Source: Cryobacterium arcticum (GTDB lineage Bacteria > Actinomycetota > Actinomycetes > Actinomycetales > Microbacteriaceae). From it: DNA of 64,000 nt. Shown here piece after piece: positions 18,484 to 33,301 of this stretch. The stretch is from assembly GCF_003185895.1 (NCBI RefSeq), contig NZ_QHLY01000004.1, positions 62,001 through 126,000 on the forward strand. The letters are read 5' to 3'. Position 1 is the stretch's first letter, and each line of letters opens with the position of its first letter. Under the pieces are notes generated by a model. It was not told the origin of the DNA, did not search any database, and worked only from the letters and a program-made list of their open reading frames with translations. A program made the translations under genes and the position numbers.

Positions 18484-19278
18484 TCAGCGGCCCTCGAAGA
18501 CCGCCTCGGTGCGGGTGAGGAACGCTTCCATGCCGATTCGGGCATCCGTGGAGCCGGCCAGCCGGGCCAGGGCGGGCTGTAGTTCGGCCTCGGCCGCCGC
18601 TGCACCCTCACGAAGAGCCAGCCGGGCGTTGGCGAGGGTGGCCTGCACGGCCAGCGGGGCCTGGGCGGCGATGCGCTCGGCGAGCTCGATCGCCCGGTGC
18701 AGCTCGCGGCCGTTGGGGGCGATCTCCTGCACCAGCCCGAGCCGGTGCGCCTCGCGGGCGTCGAACAGGTCGCCGGTGAGCAGCCAGCGCATGGCGTTGC
18801 CCCAGCCGGCGGCCCGGGGAAAACGGATGGTGGCGCCGCCGAACGGCAGGATGCCCCGGCTGACCTCGATCTGGCCGAACCGGGTGGATTCGGCGGCCAC
18901 GACGATGTCGCTGGCGAGCATCAGCTCGATGCCCAGGGTGAGACAGGTGCCCTGCACGGCGATCACGACGGGTTTGCTCAGCGCCGTGCCGTCGACCTGC
19001 CAGGGGTTGATGCCGCCCTCCGGCACCATCTCCAAGCCCTCGGGGCCGAGCCTCGGGCCGATGTCGGCCAAGTCGAGGCCGGCGGTGAAGTGTTCACCGA
19101 GCGCGTGCACCACGCCCACCCGCAGGTCGGGGTCGCGCTCGAGCTGCCCGTAGGCCAGGGCGAGCTGCTGCAGCATGGCGAAGTCCGCCGCGTTGCGCTT
19201 CTCCGGCCGGTTCAGGCCGATCAGCAGCAGGTGCCCCCGCCGCTCCACGACAACTCGAGCGTCCGACGCATCCGTCAC
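18484..19278 (-). CDS. Enoyl-CoA hydratase/isomerase (crotonase family)
   Basis: 264-residue crotonase. RPEKRNAADFAML (about 24-36) and HFTAGLDLADIG (about 63-74) form the CoA and oxyanion region; GTCLTLGIELMLASDI (about 110-125) and FGQIEVSRGILPFGG (about 134-148) keep both glutamates expected for hydratase activity. The usual crotonase-family length fits. Substrate chain length cannot be read. AAGGAG ribosome site before ATG. A 61-bp repeat element lies just upstream, between it and the arginase-family gene. Confidence 0.88.
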   Translation of the reverse strand: MTDASDARVVVERRGHLLLIGLNRPEKRNAADFAMLQQLALAYGQLERDPDLRVGVVHALGEHFTAGLDLADIGPRLGPEGLEMVPEGGINPWQVDGTALSKPVVIAVQGTCLTLGIELMLASDIVVAAESTRFGQIEVSRGILPFGGATIRFPRAAGWGNAMRWLLTGDLFDAREAHRLGLVQEIAPNGRELHRAIELAERIAAQAPLAVQATLANARLALREGAAAAEAELQPALARLAGSTDARIGMEAFLTRTEAVFEGR

Positions 19279-19304: not shown

Positions 19305-19365
19305 CGCGAACCGTGAGAAAAGCACCGAAAAACTCGAGTTTTCGGGGCTTAGCTCACAGCTCGCG
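19305..19365 (-). repeat. 61-bp palindromic element, copy A
   Basis: Read on the minus strand it matches copies at 28750-28810 and 30989-31049 in length and most positions: outer CGCGA/TCGCG ends, GTGAGCTAAGCCCCGAAAA in the left half and a complementary right half ending in CTCAC, with CTCGAG at the centre. Here it separates two tandem genes, 9 bases after the arginase-family stop and 26 bases before the crotonase ATG. It can fold into one long hairpin. Confidence 0.85.
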
Positions 19366-19373
19366 GAGGGGAA

Positions 19374-20207
19374 TTAGCGGGTGAGGGCGCCGATGATGCG
19401 CAGAATGCTGGGCAGGTCGTCGTTCGCGGCTTCGGGGGAAGACGGCGCGAACCCGGCGATGGTGGCGCCGGCAAGGGTGAACTCCTTGCGCAGGGCCACG
19501 ATGGCGCCCGTGAGGCTCTCCACCGCCAGACCGAACGGATAGATATTCGACAGCCCCACGATGGTGGCGGGGTCGAGAACGTCGAGGTCGATGTGCAGGT
19601 AGATGTGCGCGGCACCGGTGCGCTTCACCGCGGCCACGAGAGCGTCGGGGCTGTTGAAGCTCTCCACCGGCACCAGCGGGATGCCCTGTTCGGTGATGTA
19701 GACATCCTCGGCCGGGTCGATGTCGCGCACGCCGGCCAACACCACCCGGTCGGGCGTGATGCGGGCATCCGGGTCGAGCGCGAGCCCGTCGGTGCCGTCG
19801 CCGAGGATGGCGCGCAGCACCATGCCGCCGAAGCCGCCGGACTGCGACGATTCGCTGGTGTGCAGGTCGGGGTGGGCGTCGAACCAGACCAGGGCGATGT
19901 CGCCGGGGTGCCGCCGGGAGGCGTGCTCGACGGCGCCGAACGAGACCCCGCAGTCGCCGCCGATGGTGAGCACCGGCTCGGTGCTGGTGCGCAGAACCGC
20001 GAGCTGCCGGTCCCGCACCGTCAACAGCGAGGAGAACCGGTGGATGCCGGTGTCCAGCGAGTCGCCGGCCTCGACCGGCACGTCGACCGGATAGGTGACC
20101 GAGAAGGGCAGGTCACCCCTGATCGCCTCCGCACCGTCGACAAGGCGCATCGCGCGAGGAGAAACCGAACCTTGCCACTGCGGCACAACCACGTAGTTGG
20201 GAGACAC
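19374..20207 (-). CDS. Arginase/agmatinase-family ureohydrolase
   Basis: 277-residue ureohydrolase-fold enzyme. Metal-binding motifs: GGDCGVSFG (about residues 84-92), WFDAHPDLHT (about 108-117) and HIDLDVLDP (about 210-218), containing the Asp and His ligands of the binuclear manganese site; the first motif has GGDC where GGDHS is usual, so one ligand (His) is changed to Cys. That substitution leaves the activity uncertain. Substrate could be arginine, agmatine, formiminoglutamate or another guanidino compound. GTG start chosen because a CATACT -10 box ends six bases before it. Confidence 0.85.
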   Translation of the reverse strand: MSPNYVVVPQWQGSVSPRAMRLVDGAEAIRGDLPFSVTYPVDVPVEAGDSLDTGIHRFSSLLTVRDRQLAVLRTSTEPVLTIGGDCGVSFGAVEHASRRHPGDIALVWFDAHPDLHTSESSQSGGFGGMVLRAILGDGTDGLALDPDARITPDRVVLAGVRDIDPAEDVYITEQGIPLVPVESFNSPDALVAAVKRTGAAHIYLHIDLDVLDPATIVGLSNIYPFGLAVESLTGAIVALRKEFTLAGATIAGFAPSSPEAANDDLPSILRIIGALTR

Positions 20208-20269
20208 CCCCTCAGTATGCTCCCCAGCCCGGGCCCGGCGCATCTGTCTGCGTGGGTCCGGTGCGACCG

Positions 20270-28749: not shown

Positions 28750-28810
28750 CGCGACCTGTGAGCTAAGCCCCGAAAAACCCGAGTTTTGGGTGCTTAGGTC
28801 ACGGCTCGCG
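28750..28810 (+). repeat. 61-bp palindromic element, copy B
   Basis: Same length and layout as copies A and C: CGCGA end, GTGAGCTAAGCCCCGAAAA, a complementary right half, and a TCGCG end. It lies between two convergent genes; it begins 3 bases after the stop of the C26-type hydrolase gene, and its right arm holds the TAA stop and last few codons of the TetR gene on the minus strand. Confidence 0.88.
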
Positions 28811-29327
28811 GGCGCACCCGGGCCAGGAACGCGGGCACGTCCAGCTCGTGCTCGAACGGCTCGGCGACGGTGGTGGCGTCGTAGTACAGGCCGTCGGCCA
28901 GCAGCATGGTGGCCCGGGCCAACTCGGGGTCCTGCAAATCGTCGTTGAGAATCTCGAAGTACCGGCGCCGCATCTCCACCACCACCGCCCGGGCCTGTGG
29001 GGTGCGGCGGGCCAGGGTGCCGCCGGCGAGGGTGGCCCGGTCCAGCGGGCTGTTCACGTACTCGGCCAGGCTCACGTAGTAGGCGGCAGCGCCGCCCGGG
29101 GCCTGCCGCATGCGTTCGTATTCGGCGGCGGCCAGCGTCTCGAGCCGTTCGATCAGCGCGGTCTCCAGCCCGTCCCGGGAGCCGAAGTGGTAGAGCAGGC
29201 CGCCCTTGGTGACGCCGGCGGCTTTCGCGACCGCGTCGAGGGAAGCGCCGGAACCGCTGGTGTCAATGAGCAGTTCCTGGAACGCGGTGAGGATGCTCTC
29301 CCGCGCGCTGTCGCGATGTTGGGCCAT
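28794..29327 (-). CDS. TetR-family repressor, divergent from MFS pump
   Basis: 177-residue TetR protein. The DNA-binding domain is about residues 8-55 (LDAVAKAAGVTKGGLLYHF is the helix-turn-helix), followed by a helical ligand domain. Start chosen at the ATG with MAQHRDSARESI; longer frames reach into the neighbouring gene's promoter. Its last codons and TAA stop come from the 61-bp element. It faces the MFS gene across a mirrored site and probably represses it in response to the pump substrate. Confidence 0.88.
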   Translation of the reverse strand: MAQHRDSARESILTAFQELLIDTSGSGASLDAVAKAAGVTKGGLLYHFGSRDGLETALIERLETLAAAEYERMRQAPGGAAAYYVSLAEYVNSPLDRATLAGGTLARRTPQARAVVVEMRRRYFEILNDDLQDPELARATMLLADGLYYDATTVAEPFEHELDVPAFLARVRPRAVT

Positions 29328-29336
29328 GCCCGCCAC

Positions 29337-29390
29337 TTTACTGTACTTGGTGGTATAGTCGATGTCTGCTGTACTGAATGGTGCAGTAAA
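29337..29390. promoter_or_regulatory. Mirrored half-sites in the tetR / MFS divergent promoter
   Basis: TTTACTGTAC at 29337-29346 and GTGCAGTAAA at 29381-29390 are reverse complements but for one base. CTGTACT also recurs in between (29369-29375). They lie between the TetR start and the MFS start and are plausible operator half-sites. Spacing (34 bases) is long for one TetR dimer, so two dimers are possible. Confidence 0.5.
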
Positions 29391-29433
29391 ACTCGCCGTT
29401 CCGTTCGGAACCCCGTTCTTCAGCCAGGTTGAC

Positions 29434-31005
29434 ATGAGCACGACAGACACCATCCGCACCCTTTCCGACAGCACCGCCGCCGCATCGGCCGCACCCCGCG
29501 CCGGCCGCCGGGAATGGTTCGGCCTGGTGCTGCTGATGCTGCCGGTGTTGCTCATCTCGGTGGACAACACCGTGCTGAGTTTCGCCCTGCCGGCGATCAG
29601 CCTCGACCTGCGCCCCAGCAGCACCACGCTGCTCTGGATCGTCGACGTCTACCCGCTGGTGCTCGCCGGCTTGCTGGTGGCCATGGGCACTCTCGGCGAC
29701 CGGGTTGGCCGGCGCCGGCTGCTTCTGATCGGTGCCACCGGGTTCGGTGTGGTGTCGGTGCTGGCGGCGTTCGCGCCCACCGCCGAGTTGCTGATCGCGG
29801 CCCGCGCGGTGATGGGCTTCTTCGGCGCCATGATCATGCCGTCCACCCTCTCGTTGCTGCGCAGCCTGTTCCGGGATGCCCGCCAGCGCACCCTGGCGAT
29901 CGCGGTCTGGGCCGGTGCCTTCGCGGCCGGGTCGAGCCTCGGCCCGATCGTGGGCGGGGTAGTTCTGCAGCACTTCAACTGGGGTGCCGTGTTTCTCATC
30001 GCGGTGCCGTTCCTGCTGCCCCTCGTGGTGTTCGCACCCTTGCTGGTGCCCGAGTCCAAGGACCCGGCGCCATTGAAGATCGACCTGGCCAGCGTGGCGC
30101 TGTCGCTGCTCACGCTCACCCCGTTGGTGTTCGCCATCAAGACCCTCACCCACGATGGCGCCACGGTGCTCGGCCTCGGCGCGCTGGTGCTGGGCCTGGT
30201 CGCCGGCGCGGTCTTCCTCCGCCGCCAGCTGCGCATCGGCAACCCGCTGCTCGACCTGGCCCTGTTCCGGCATGCGCCGTTCGCCGGGTCGGTGCTGGCG
30301 AACTTCCTCTCGGTCTTCAGCCTGGTCGGGTTCCTGTTCTTCGTATCGCAGCACCTGCAGCTGGTACTCGGCCTCGACCCGCTCGACGCCGGACTGCTCC
30401 TGTTGCCCGGAGCCGTGCTGTCGGTAGCCGCCGGCCTGGGCGCGGCCTACGTGGTGCGCCGGGTGCCGCCGCGTCTGGTGATCGTGGCCGGCATCCTGCT
30501 CTCGGCCGGAGGTTTCGCGCTGATCGTGCTGCTGCGGGAAAACCTGACGGCCGGGGTGGTGGCGCTCGCGTTCGGCATCCTCTCGGTGGGCGTCGGTGCG
30601 GCCGAGACCATCTCCAACGACACCATCCTGAGCTCGGTGCCGGCCGACAAGGCCGGGGCTGCGGCCGGTGTCTCCGAGACCGCCTATGAGCTCGGTGCCG
30701 TGCTCGGCACCGCTGTGCTCGGCGCGATCCTCGCGGCCTCCTACCGGGCTGCCGTGGTGCTGCCCGACGGCCTCGGCGCCGGGGCGGCCGGCCAGGCCGG
30801 AGAAACCCTCGGCGGGGCGCTCGGTGTGGCCGGAAGCCTGCCTGCCGGTCAAGCCGAGGCGCTCACCGAGTCGGCTCGGGCAGCGTTCGACAGCGGCGTT
30901 GGCGTGACCTCGATCATCGCCGTGGCGCTGATGCTGGTGGCCGCGGCCGCCGTGCAACTGAGCATGCGCCCCCGCCGCACCTCCCGCCCGCGACCCGTGA
31001 GCTAA
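29434..31005 (+). CDS. MFS multidrug transporter, QacA/SmvA-like 14-helix type
   Basis: 523-residue inner-membrane antiporter. Motif ISVDNTVLSFALPAIS near residues 42-57 matches the helix-1 signature of the DHA2 family, the loop LGDRVGRRRL follows helix 2, and fourteen hydrophobic helices can be drawn. Likely exports lipophilic cations or dyes, by family. ATG at 29434 chosen for the AGG site before it; the frame is open 72 bases further upstream through the operator region. The last codons and TAA stop lie inside the 61-bp element. Confidence 0.88.
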   Translation: MSTTDTIRTLSDSTAAASAAPRAGRREWFGLVLLMLPVLLISVDNTVLSFALPAISLDLRPSSTTLLWIVDVYPLVLAGLLVAMGTLGDRVGRRRLLLIGATGFGVVSVLAAFAPTAELLIAARAVMGFFGAMIMPSTLSLLRSLFRDARQRTLAIAVWAGAFAAGSSLGPIVGGVVLQHFNWGAVFLIAVPFLLPLVVFAPLLVPESKDPAPLKIDLASVALSLLTLTPLVFAIKTLTHDGATVLGLGALVLGLVAGAVFLRRQLRIGNPLLDLALFRHAPFAGSVLANFLSVFSLVGFLFFVSQHLQLVLGLDPLDAGLLLLPGAVLSVAAGLGAAYVVRRVPPRLVIVAGILLSAGGFALIVLLRENLTAGVVALAFGILSVGVGAAETISNDTILSSVPADKAGAAAGVSETAYELGAVLGTAVLGAILAASYRAAVVLPDGLGAGAAGQAGETLGGALGVAGSLPAGQAEALTESARAAFDSGVGVTSIIAVALMLVAAAAVQLSMRPRRTSRPRPVS

Positions 31006-31049
31006 GCCCCGAAAACCTCGAGTTTTGGGTGCTTTCCTCTCAGCTCGCG
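30989..31049 (+). repeat. 61-bp palindromic element, copy C
   Basis: Third copy, again exactly 61 bp. Left arm supplies the last codons and TAA of the plus-strand MFS gene; right arm supplies the last codons and TGA of the minus-strand copA gene. Centre CTCGAG; arms can pair to form a long stem suited to termination in both directions. Confidence 0.88.
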
Positions 31050-33301
31050 AAGGGGCGGAAGCCGCGCAGGCGGAGGCTGTTGCTCACCACGAAGACCGAG
31101 GAGAGCGCCATGGCGGCGCCCGCGATCAGCGGGTTGAGCAGGCCGAGGGCGGCCAGCGGGATCGCCGCCACGTTGTAGGCGAACGCCCAGAACAGGTTCG
31201 CCTTGATCGTGGCCAGCGTGCGCCGGGACAACCGGATGGCATCGACCACGGCGAGCAGGTCGGCACGCACCAGAGTGATGTCACTGGCTTCGATGGCCAC
31301 ATCGGTACCCGTGCCCATGGCGATGCCGAGGTCGGCGGCGGCCAGCGCCGCGGCGTCGTTCACGCCGTCGCCCACCATCGCCACCACGTGGCCGGCGGCC
31401 TGCAGCGCGCGCACCCTGTCAACCTTCTCGGCCGGCAGCACACCCGCGAAGACCTCGCTGATGCCCACCTGGTCGGCCACAGCGCGGGCGGCGGTGGGGT
31501 TGTCGCCGGTGAGCAGCACCGGAGTGAGCCCGAGCGCCACCAACTGGGCCACGGCCGCAGCGCTGCTGGGCTTGACCTCATCGGCCACGGCCAGGATGCC
31601 CCGGGCCGCGCCATCCCAGGCCACCGCCACGGCGGTCTGCCCGCGCGCCTCGATACCGGCCAGCACCTCGGCCAGATCGGCGGGCAAGATCACCTGCCAC
31701 TCGTCGGCCAACCACCGCGGCCGGCCCACCAGCACTAAGTGGCCTTCGACGGTGGCCTGCACGCCGAAGCCCTGCGCCGAGGTGAAGGCCGTGGCTGCAG
31801 GCAGGATGCCCACCTGGTCGGCCGCACCGTTCACGATGGCGATCCCGATCGGATGCTCAGAGCCGGCCTCGGCCGCGCCCGCCAGCCGCAGAAGCTCGGT
31901 TTCCGCAGCAGCACCGGCAGGGGTTCCCGCCAAGCCGCCGTCCGCGGCCACCCCGGCAGCCACATGCACGCCGAGCAACGCCATCCGCCCCGTGGTCACG
32001 GTGCCGGTCTTGTCAAGCACGATGGCGTCCACCTGGCGGGTGGACTCCAGGATCTGTGGTCCGCGAATGAGGATGCCCAACTGAGCGCCGCGCCCGGTGC
32101 CCACCAACAGGGCGGTGGGAGTGGCCAGACCCAGGGCACACGGGCAGGCGATGATGAGCGTGGCCACCGCGGCGGTGAACGCCTGTTCGGGGCTGGCGCC
32201 GACAAGCAGCCAGACCGCCAGGGTCCCCAGCGCGATCACGAACACGATCGGCACGAAGACCGCGGAGACCCGGTCGGCCAGGCGCTGCACAGGGGCCTTG
32301 CCGGACTGCGCCTGCTCCACCAGCCGGCCGATGCGGGCCAGCTCGGTGTCGGCGCCCACCCGGGTGGCACGCACGGTGAGGCGGCCGCCGGAGTTGACGG
32401 TGGCGCCCACGACGGTGTCGCCGGGGCCCACCTCCACCGGCACGGTCTCGCCGGTGAGCAGGCTGGTGTCGATGGCCGAGGCGCCATCGACGACCACGCC
32501 GTCTGTGGCCACCTTCTCGCCCGGTCGCACCACGAAGACGTCACCGACCATCAGTTCGCCGATCGGGATGCGCCGTTCGAGCGACCCGCGCAGCACGGCC
32601 ACGTCTTTCGCGCCCAGGTTGACCAGCGCCTGCAGGGCCGCGCCGGAGCGGGTCTTGGCCCGCGCCTCGAAGTACCGCCCGGCCAGGATGAAGACCGTGA
32701 CGGCGGCCGCGACCTCGAGGTAGATGTCGGTCTGCCCCGACATGCCGAAGCTCAGCTGCATGGTCATGCCGGGCATGCCGGCGTCACCCAGGAACAGGGC
32801 GTAGAGCGACCAGCCGAACGCGGCCAGCACGCCCACGCTGATCAGGGTGTCCATGCTGGCGGCGCCGTGCCTGGCGTTCAGCCACGCGGCCCGGTGGAAC
32901 GGCCACGCGCCCCAGACGGCCACCGGGGCGGCGAGCGTCAGGGCCAACCACTGCCAGTTGGTGAACTGCAGCGCGGGCACCATGGAGAGCAGGGTCACCG
33001 GAATCGCCAGGGCGGTGGAGACCAGCAGCCGCTGACGTAGCGCGAGGGTGTCGGCATCCAGCTCGGCTGTGACCGGCTCGGTGACCACGGGCGCGGGCAG
33101 CCGGGCGGTGTAGCCGGTGGCCACGATGGTGGCGATGGCGTCGTCGACGGTGGTGCCCTCGGGCAGGCGAACGGTGGCCTTGTCGGTGGCGTAGTTGACC
33201 GTGGCAACCACCCCGGGCAGGCGGTTGAGCTTCTTCTCGATACGGGCGGCGCACGACGCGCAGGTCATGCCGCCGACCAGGAGGTCGACGGGCTCGCTCA
33301 C
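31040..33301 (-). CDS. copA: Copper-exporting P1B-type ATPase
   Basis: 753 residues. One N-terminal heavy-metal domain ([12 protein letters not shown], about 10-21), eight membrane helices, phosphatase loop with [10 protein letters not shown] (about 280), metal-site [12 protein letters not shown] (about 385), phosphorylation site DKTGTVT (about 430), SEHPIG (nucleotide His-Pro) and [11 protein letters not shown] near 645. These define a Cu(I)-type CopA that pumps cytosolic copper out using ATP. Its ATG overlaps the copZ stop (ATGA). Its stop lies within repeat element C. Confidence 0.96.

What the first reader, a model, noticed from the sequence alone, without database searches (positions are those of the whole stretch)
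28750..31049. A 61-bp palindromic element in three exactly equal copies
Copies A (19305-19365, reverse), B (28750-28810) and C (30989-31049) are all 61 bp, share CGCGA/TCGCG ends, GTGAGCTAAGCCCCGAAAA in the left half, an approximately complementary right half and a CTCGAG-like centre. Despite base changes in the arms, equal length and symmetry are kept, pointing to a structured, possibly mobile or terminator-type repeat family. I see no reading frame inside it. I know of no named family with this sequence.
Basis: seen in the sequence. Interest (0 to 1): 0.75.

Follow-up and report, generated by a model that had tools for sequence, protein, structure and literature searches.

The report
Fixed-length 61-bp palindromic repeat family
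A Cryobacterium genome carries at least 71 copies of a 61-letter, almost mirror-symmetric DNA element, mostly in narrow gaps at gene ends; its length is nearly always exactly the same although much of its sequence drifts, which suggests that an unknown protein grips both ends of it.

Summary
The three copies belong to a large unnamed family: 71 places in this Cryobacterium genome (a lower bound) and 26-72 strict-pattern copies in six relatives. Length is very fixed. With the middle free over 51-81 bp, 103 of 107 copies are 61 bp; at five sites found by flanking genes 40 of 43 are. Free columns differ in 35% of comparisons there, conserved ones in 0.7%. Two genomes of another family of the order have 61-bp copies with the same CGCGAAC ends and different arms, 16 of 16. 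The element sits at gene 3' ends, often between convergent genes, and in 35 of 194 cases a stop codon lies inside it.

Both arms share one consensus but vary independently at the free outer positions. This fits a duplex-DNA double half-site for a symmetric protein better than a selected RNA hairpin, although apical positions do pair more than expected. U-tracts are on a minority of strands. RAYT transposases are absent from 57 of 57 genomes, and 104 of 107 copies lack a target-site duplication. Paper searches found no name. The binding protein and the function are unknown.

The parts
19305..19365 (-). Copy A of the 61-bp element, between two minus-strand genes: stop codon of an arginase-family gene (19374-20243) on one side, start of an enoyl-CoA hydratase gene (18484-19278) on the other
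28750..28810 (+). Copy B of the 61-bp element, between convergent genes: a peptidase C26/glutamine amidotransferase gene (+) and a TetR-type regulator gene (-)
30989..31049 (+). Copy C of the 61-bp element, between convergent genes: an MFS transporter gene (+) and a P-type ATPase gene (-)
28794..28796 (-). Stop codon of the TetR-type reading frame, supplied by the right arm of copy B
31003..31005 (+). Stop codon of the MFS reading frame, supplied by the left arm of copy C
31040..31042 (-). Stop codon of the P-type ATPase reading frame, inside the right arm of copy C

Best explanation
The element is a dispersed, dyad-symmetric duplex-DNA site of fixed geometry: two copies of a half-site of about 28 bp facing each other in 61 bp, in short gaps at gene 3' ends. 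SHOWN: copy number, near-constant length, a shared half-site consensus, independent variation of the arms at free outer positions, retention at orthologous sites with conserved columns held and free columns drifting, and presence/absence between relatives. INFERRED: a symmetric sequence-specific DNA-binding protein contacts both ends at once. That would explain the fixed length, the equal but independent arms, the genome-specific arm sequence in some clades (site and protein changing together) and the erosion seen in a few genomes (protein lost). GUESSED: its job, by analogy with REP/BIME repeats: a topology, nucleoid or roadblock site between transcription units.
For: Length: 103 of 107 copies are 61 bp with 51-81 allowed; 45 of 46 in G005; 56 of the 59 G066 copies listed, of 96; 40 of 43 at orthologous sites; 16 of 16 GGCAG-arm copies in G029/G522. 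Arms: pairing equals shuffled pairing in own copies (82.8 against 82.9%); positions 8 and 13-16 at chance in 102 named-species copies and in 56 G066 copies; arms independent in 45 G005 copies, with position 26 tending to be non-complementary (z -2.8). Constraint: 10 of 1440 differences at conserved columns against 609 of 1728 at free columns among copy-rich genomes. In G005 and G002 the copy at the shared site S1 has the arm sequence of that genome's other copies.
Against: No binding protein was identified. Apical positions pair more than expected in the named-species set (23-26 and 28, z 2.4 to 6.1; position 6, z 5.0), and positions 25-26 in own copies (z 5.5, 5.7, resting on one or two copies). 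Real elements fold better than re-paired arms in the mixed set (z -4.6) and G066 (z -2.9), not in own copies (z +1.1). In the 16 other-family copies positions 8 and 14 pair more than expected (z 3.2, 2.5). Length is looser in G021 (6 of 11 at the 61-bp equivalent), G018 (3 of 5) and G002 (5 of 6). The G018 copy at S1 does not resemble its five listed copies. Gene conversion among copies could also make arms independent.
Confidence: 0.47

Rival explanations
1. A bidirectional transcription terminator or mRNA 3'-end hairpin: both transcripts of a convergent pair fold the palindrome and end, or are protected, there.
For: Placement 2-18 nt behind 132 of 194 stop codons and frequent convergent context. 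Stable folds on both strands of all three window copies (z -2.7 to -6.6). Excess apical pairing. In G052 one eroded copy keeps a perfect inner hairpin with damaged outer arms (one case).
Against: At least 5 T of 8 behind the inner stem on only 17 of 88, 68 of 204 and 29 of 112 strands in three sets; the listed G005 copies read GGTGCC(A/G)AACTCAC or close variants there, with no T run. The most conserved part is the outer arm sequence, which a terminator does not need. No compensation at free outer positions. Behind 5S rRNA genes another terminator-like hairpin comes first. In the window's 15-kb stretch the terminator scan finds 4 sites against 3.6 expected, one of them in copy A.
Confidence: 0.2
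2. A non-autonomous mobile element (MITE-like) whose inverted ends are recognised by a transposase or recombinase acting in trans; the fixed length reflects the machine that joins the two ends.
For: Conserved inverted ends, dispersed copies, filled and empty sites among relatives. In named genome N22 two copies at unlike flanks agree in 59 of 61 positions (L107, L169), so fairly recent copying is not excluded. Element-free sites hold YYCGCGRR somewhat more than its base rate: sites A and B 3 of 11 (0.14 expected), S1 1 of 13 (0.40) and S3 3 of 13 (0.56; G004 and G051 share that sequence and G002 holds another palindrome); this could be a target or a deletion scar.
Against: No target-site duplication in 104 of 107 copies, unless the terminal CGCG is one. 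No cognate transposase known; RAYT absent. Conserved columns are held at single orthologous sites while free columns drift, more than a dead insertion would do.
Confidence: 0.25
3. No present function: an old repeat whose copies are kept alike by gene conversion among themselves.
For: Arms freely mixed from a common pool; genome-specific arms in G005 and G002.
Against: Conversion would homogenise every column, yet about half are free, and the same outer columns are conserved in separate clades; length is kept where arms differ.
Confidence: 0.05

Closest known systems
REP elements / BIMEs with RAYT transposases (described in PMC2817692; abstract and passages seen)
   Same: Abundant, intergenic imperfect palindromes, tens to over a hundred per genome, with clade-specific sequence.
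   Different: 61 bp instead of the 21-35 nt in the table seen; no GT(A/G)G head; no Y1 transposase in 57 of 57 genus genomes.
[quoted passage not shown] recalled, PMC10969869 seen in a listing only)
   Same: Short, non-coding, inverted ends, dispersed, present or absent at orthologous sites.
   Different: Hardly any target-site duplication, no parent IS recognised, near-constant length.
Bidirectional intrinsic terminators between convergent genes (recalled)
   Same: Position just behind stop codons, stable hairpin on both strands.
   Different: Conserved sequence and length, U-tract missing on most strands.
Paired DNA uptake sequences acting as terminators (mentioned in a passage of PMC2267715)
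   Same: Inverted pairs of a sequence-recognised motif forming hairpins.
   Different: Here the pair has a fixed 61-bp geometry; single half-sites were looked for only in the fetched loci.

Membership tests
REP/RAYT | RAYT (Y1_Tnp, PF01797) gene in the genome | tested here: not met
   0 of 57 genus genomes; 5 of 14 control genomes have it
REP/RAYT | GT(A/G)G head next to the palindrome | tested here: not met
   Flanks at -4 to -1 and +1 to +4 show no such tetranucleotide in the column counts of 106 copies
REP/RAYT | Many dispersed intergenic imperfect palindromes | tested here: met
   71 places; context
MITE | Terminal inverted repeats | tested here: met
   Outer 12 bp conserved and inverted
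MITE | Target-site duplication | tested here: not met
   104 of 107 copies have none directly outside the 61-mer, 2 have one base, 1 has four; whether the terminal CGCG is itself a duplication is open
MITE | Parent transposon with the same ends | tested here: inconclusive
   Only the fetched loci were scanned for unpaired arms; the one split copy holds an IS with other ends
Intrinsic terminator | Stable RNA hairpin | tested here: met
   both strands of the three window copies
Intrinsic terminator | U-tract behind the hairpin | tested here: not met
   17 of 88, 68 of 204, 29 of 112 strands have at least 5 T of 8, so not a family feature
Intrinsic terminator | Transcripts end there | not testable with these tools
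   needs RNA 3'-end mapping
Duplex site for a symmetric protein | Equal half-sites varying independently at fixed spacing | tested here: met
   with the exceptions in the Against line
Duplex site for a symmetric protein | A protein that binds it | not testable with these tools
   needs affinity purification
Any named RNA family | Match in Rfam 15 | tested here: not met
   0 gathering-level matches in the window

The most novel reading that the evidence does not exclude
Micrococcales encode an undescribed symmetric DNA-binding protein that clamps both ends of a 61-bp site at gene 3' ends, up to about a hundred per chromosome, as a boundary between converging transcription units or a topology/chromosome-organising site. 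Clades evolve their own arm code while the geometry stays. In two genomes of another family a second arm type comes in two length classes, 51-54 and 62-63 bp, about one helical turn apart (7 and 7 of 14 copies, none between, pattern limits 51-71).
Probability: 0.2. Interest if true: 0.85.

Novelty: new variant of a known kind. Interest (0 to 1): 0.6.

Why it matters
Dispersed intergenic palindromes are usually read as hairpins or transposition relics. Here length and arm sequence can be compared at the same sites across many genomes, and the pattern points to duplex recognition with a rigid 61-bp spacing. If a protein is found, it gives a handle on what repeats between convergent genes do. The genomes where copies seem to erode (G003 and G023, close relatives of the copy-rich G066) offer a natural comparison for finding its gene.

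Tried and rejected
RAYT-mobilised REP: rejected. Autonomous parent: the one split copy (G066, L234:6001-7504) holds an IS with its own ends and an apparent 8-bp duplication; that it is ISL3-type is recalled, not tested. The identical own pair L033/L034 has similar sequence duplicated around it, read, so it looks like a segmental duplication. I first thought, from the cut output, that no dispersed pair was closer than 58 of 61; one search shows this was wrong (59 of 61 in N22; some of the 24 pairs with unlike flanks are orthologs missed by ungapped comparison), and I moved 0.03 from the main reading to the mobile one. Plasmid or phage carriage: no match for copy B or a G029 copy. Bias along the chromosome: not tested. 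A-tract bending as the conserved feature: set aside because G005 copies lack the central A/T tracts. The first gene-context count (22 convergent, 15 tandem, 5 divergent, 3 at an edge) was replaced. Finding the protein by gene content was not possible without whole genomes.

Full report
WHAT IS THERE. The window is G000:C7:62001-126000 of a 4.31-Mb genome. The genus Cryobacterium is taken from the named records that carry the same element (C. lactosi, C. adonitolivorans, C. zongtaii and unnamed Cryobacterium). A covariance model built on 45 own copies finds 142 rows, i.e. 71 distinct places each found on both strands. At most 150 candidates were scored, so 71 is a lower bound. Rfam has no gathering-level match in the window.

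FIXED LENGTH. The first 45 copies align without a gap in 61 columns, but they were chosen by similarity. The fairer test is the named-genome scan with the middle free (51-81 bp in all). They hold 107 copies: 103 of 61 bp, three of 60 and one of 62. In G066 56 of the 59 copies listed (of 96) and in G005 45 of 46 have the matching length. Length is looser in G021 (6 of 11), G018 (3 of 5) and G002 (5 of 6). At five sites found by their flanking genes 40 of 43 copies are 61 bp and three are 60 (the own copies are the starting point, the relatives were not chosen for the element). In two genomes of one genus in another family of the order, 30 hits share the CGCGAAC ends. The 16 with GGCAG arms are all 61 bp. 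The other 14 are 51-54 bp (7) or 62-63 bp (7), about one DNA turn apart. Two subfamilies by descent would explain that too, and the pattern could not see anything shorter than 51.

WHERE IT SITS. By a home-made coding-score caller 25 of 45 own copies lie between convergent genes, 12 between tandem and 3 between divergent genes, with 5 unresolved or at a contig end. In the 107 named copies the figures are 48, 27, 8 and 24. Random positions in the same loci gave 68 of 3040 convergent, a loose control because most are coding. Of 194 inward stop codons, 132 lie 2-18 nt from the element and 35 lie inside it: 20 at the TGA of positions 10-12, 11 at the TAA of 15-17, 4 elsewhere. Some calls will be spurious. 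Copies B and C supply stop codons of their neighbours.

ARMS. Both arms follow one half-site consensus, but at the free outer positions they do not compensate each other. Own copies: 82.8% of cells paired against 82.9% after shuffling, reached by 281 of 500 shuffles. In 102 named-species copies positions 8, 13-16 and 20 pair as by chance (z -1.7 to 1.0), while position 6 (z 5.0) and apical positions 23-26 and 28 (z 2.4 to 6.1) pair more than expected; that set mixes species. In 56 G066 copies positions 8 and 13-16 are at chance (z -1.6 to 0.6), with weak signals at 20 (z 1.9), 25 (2.8), 28 (2.6) and the block 23-28 (2.4). In 45 G005 copies the arms are independent and position 26 tends to differ between them (z -2.8). 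In 16 other-family copies from two genomes positions 8 and 14 pair more than expected (z 3.2, 2.5). Folding energy against re-paired arms gives z +1.1 in own copies, -4.6 in the mixed set and -2.9 in G066. So some selection or copying process for the inner hairpin is possible, but most of the palindrome is explained by two copies of one conserved half-site. That is what duplex recognition by a symmetric protein, or arms exchanged by gene conversion, would leave; a strictly selected RNA stem would not.

HISTORY OF SITES. Site B is filled in the own genome and six relatives and empty in five. Site A is filled in the own genome and three relatives, split by an IS in G066 and empty in six; G062 was not covered. 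Site C is filled only here: the ten relatives with both flanks found have 149-733 bp of other sequence there, and G040 lacked a flank. Behind one gene (site S1), read in 29 of 30 fetched genomes, 16 have a 60-61-bp element, six of them outside the main clade, and 13 have none. The S1 copies of G005 and G002 have their own genome's arm sequence; that of G018 does not resemble its five other listed copies. Among copy-rich genomes conserved columns differ in 10 of 1440 comparisons and free columns in 609 of 1728. Departures from the consensus at conserved columns are 2 of 40 in G071, 4 of 40 in G003 and 2 of 20 in G023, against 0 to 1 per 60-100 in the copy-rich genomes. So copies look old, held under constraint where the family is abundant and eroding in a few genomes; the erosion rests on few copies. 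Dispersed pairs up to 59 of 61 alike at unlike flanks in one genome exist, so fairly recent copying is not excluded. Element-free sites A and B hold YYCGCGRR in 3 of 11 (0.14 expected), S1 in 1 of 13 (0.40) and S3 in 3 of 13 (0.56): a weak hint of an insertion target or a deletion scar.

SPREAD. The strict pattern occurs in 12 of 57 genus genomes, 1 to 72 copies each, with no hit for the reversed pattern in any. The covariance model matches 19 of 40 genomes, the own one included, at E 0.001. In 299 genomes of the bacterial family 5 match at E 1e-6: three of this genus, the own one included, and two others by one place each, with stricter filters that lose weak matches. A looser end pattern in 396 genomes of the order gives 17 and 13 hits in two genomes of one genus and at most 3 in any other genome outside Cryobacterium in the listing; many of those look like coding background, and the reversed control also gives 1-2 in some. 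No plasmid or phage record matches.

HOW IT MOST LIKELY WORKS. The reading I favour (0.47) is a fixed-geometry double half-site bound as duplex DNA by an unknown symmetric protein, with a REP/BIME-like role between genes. A MITE-like element (0.25) fits presence/absence and inverted ends, but 104 of 107 copies lack a target-site duplication. A terminator or 3'-end hairpin (0.2) fits the placement and the stable folds, but a usable U-tract is on 17 of 88, 68 of 204 and 29 of 112 strands and is missing in the listed G005 copies. Behind 5S rRNA genes a terminator-like hairpin precedes the elements. It is not a REP in the RAYT sense: PF01797 is absent from 57 of 57 genomes and present in 5 of 14 controls, and the GT(A/G)G head described in PMC2817692 (abstract and passages) is absent.

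PRINT. Searches for the genus with palindromic repeats, for a 61-bp convergent-gene repeat and for arm letters found no description (listings). The Cryobacterium genome paper PMC7381226 uses 'palindromic' only for CRISPR in the two passages shown. PMC2267715 was seen in passages only and names no such family there. Most subscription papers were not searchable.

Noticed in passing
L302:154-796 and L303:376-914 (own genome, starts of contigs C7 and C6); L304:235-295 (start of C9): Next to 5S rRNA genes the 61-mers stand in tandem units of 213-219 bp, alternating with a second inverted repeat built on TGGTCGAGCCTGTCGAGACC.
   Followed up: partly
L234:6001-7504 (G066): An IS of about 1.44 kb with GGCTCTTC-like ends sits inside a 61-bp palindrome, with an apparent 8-bp duplication AGGTTTTG.
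   Followed up: partly
L285 (G007) and L287 (G011), site orthologous to L029:2913-2973: A different palindrome built on GTGCCCGTTCCGGTCGA occupies the same convergent gap in these genomes.
   Followed up: no
L284 (G002), same site: A 60-bp palindrome with CGCGAGTGAGCA ends, perhaps another related family.
   Followed up: no
L282 (G052), same site: An eroded copy that keeps a perfect inner hairpin while both outer arms are damaged; one case.
   Followed up: no
G635:C1:437268-437337 and 1472430-1472499 (L315, L320), G430:C2:1099512-1099581: 70-bp palindromes with CGCGAACTGCG ends in another family of the order.
   Followed up: no
window 30940-31060 (copy C): Eight of ten relatives have about 500-730 bp, apparently with a small gene, between the MFS and P-type ATPase genes where this genome has only the element (the other two have 149 and 268 bp).
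   Followed up: no
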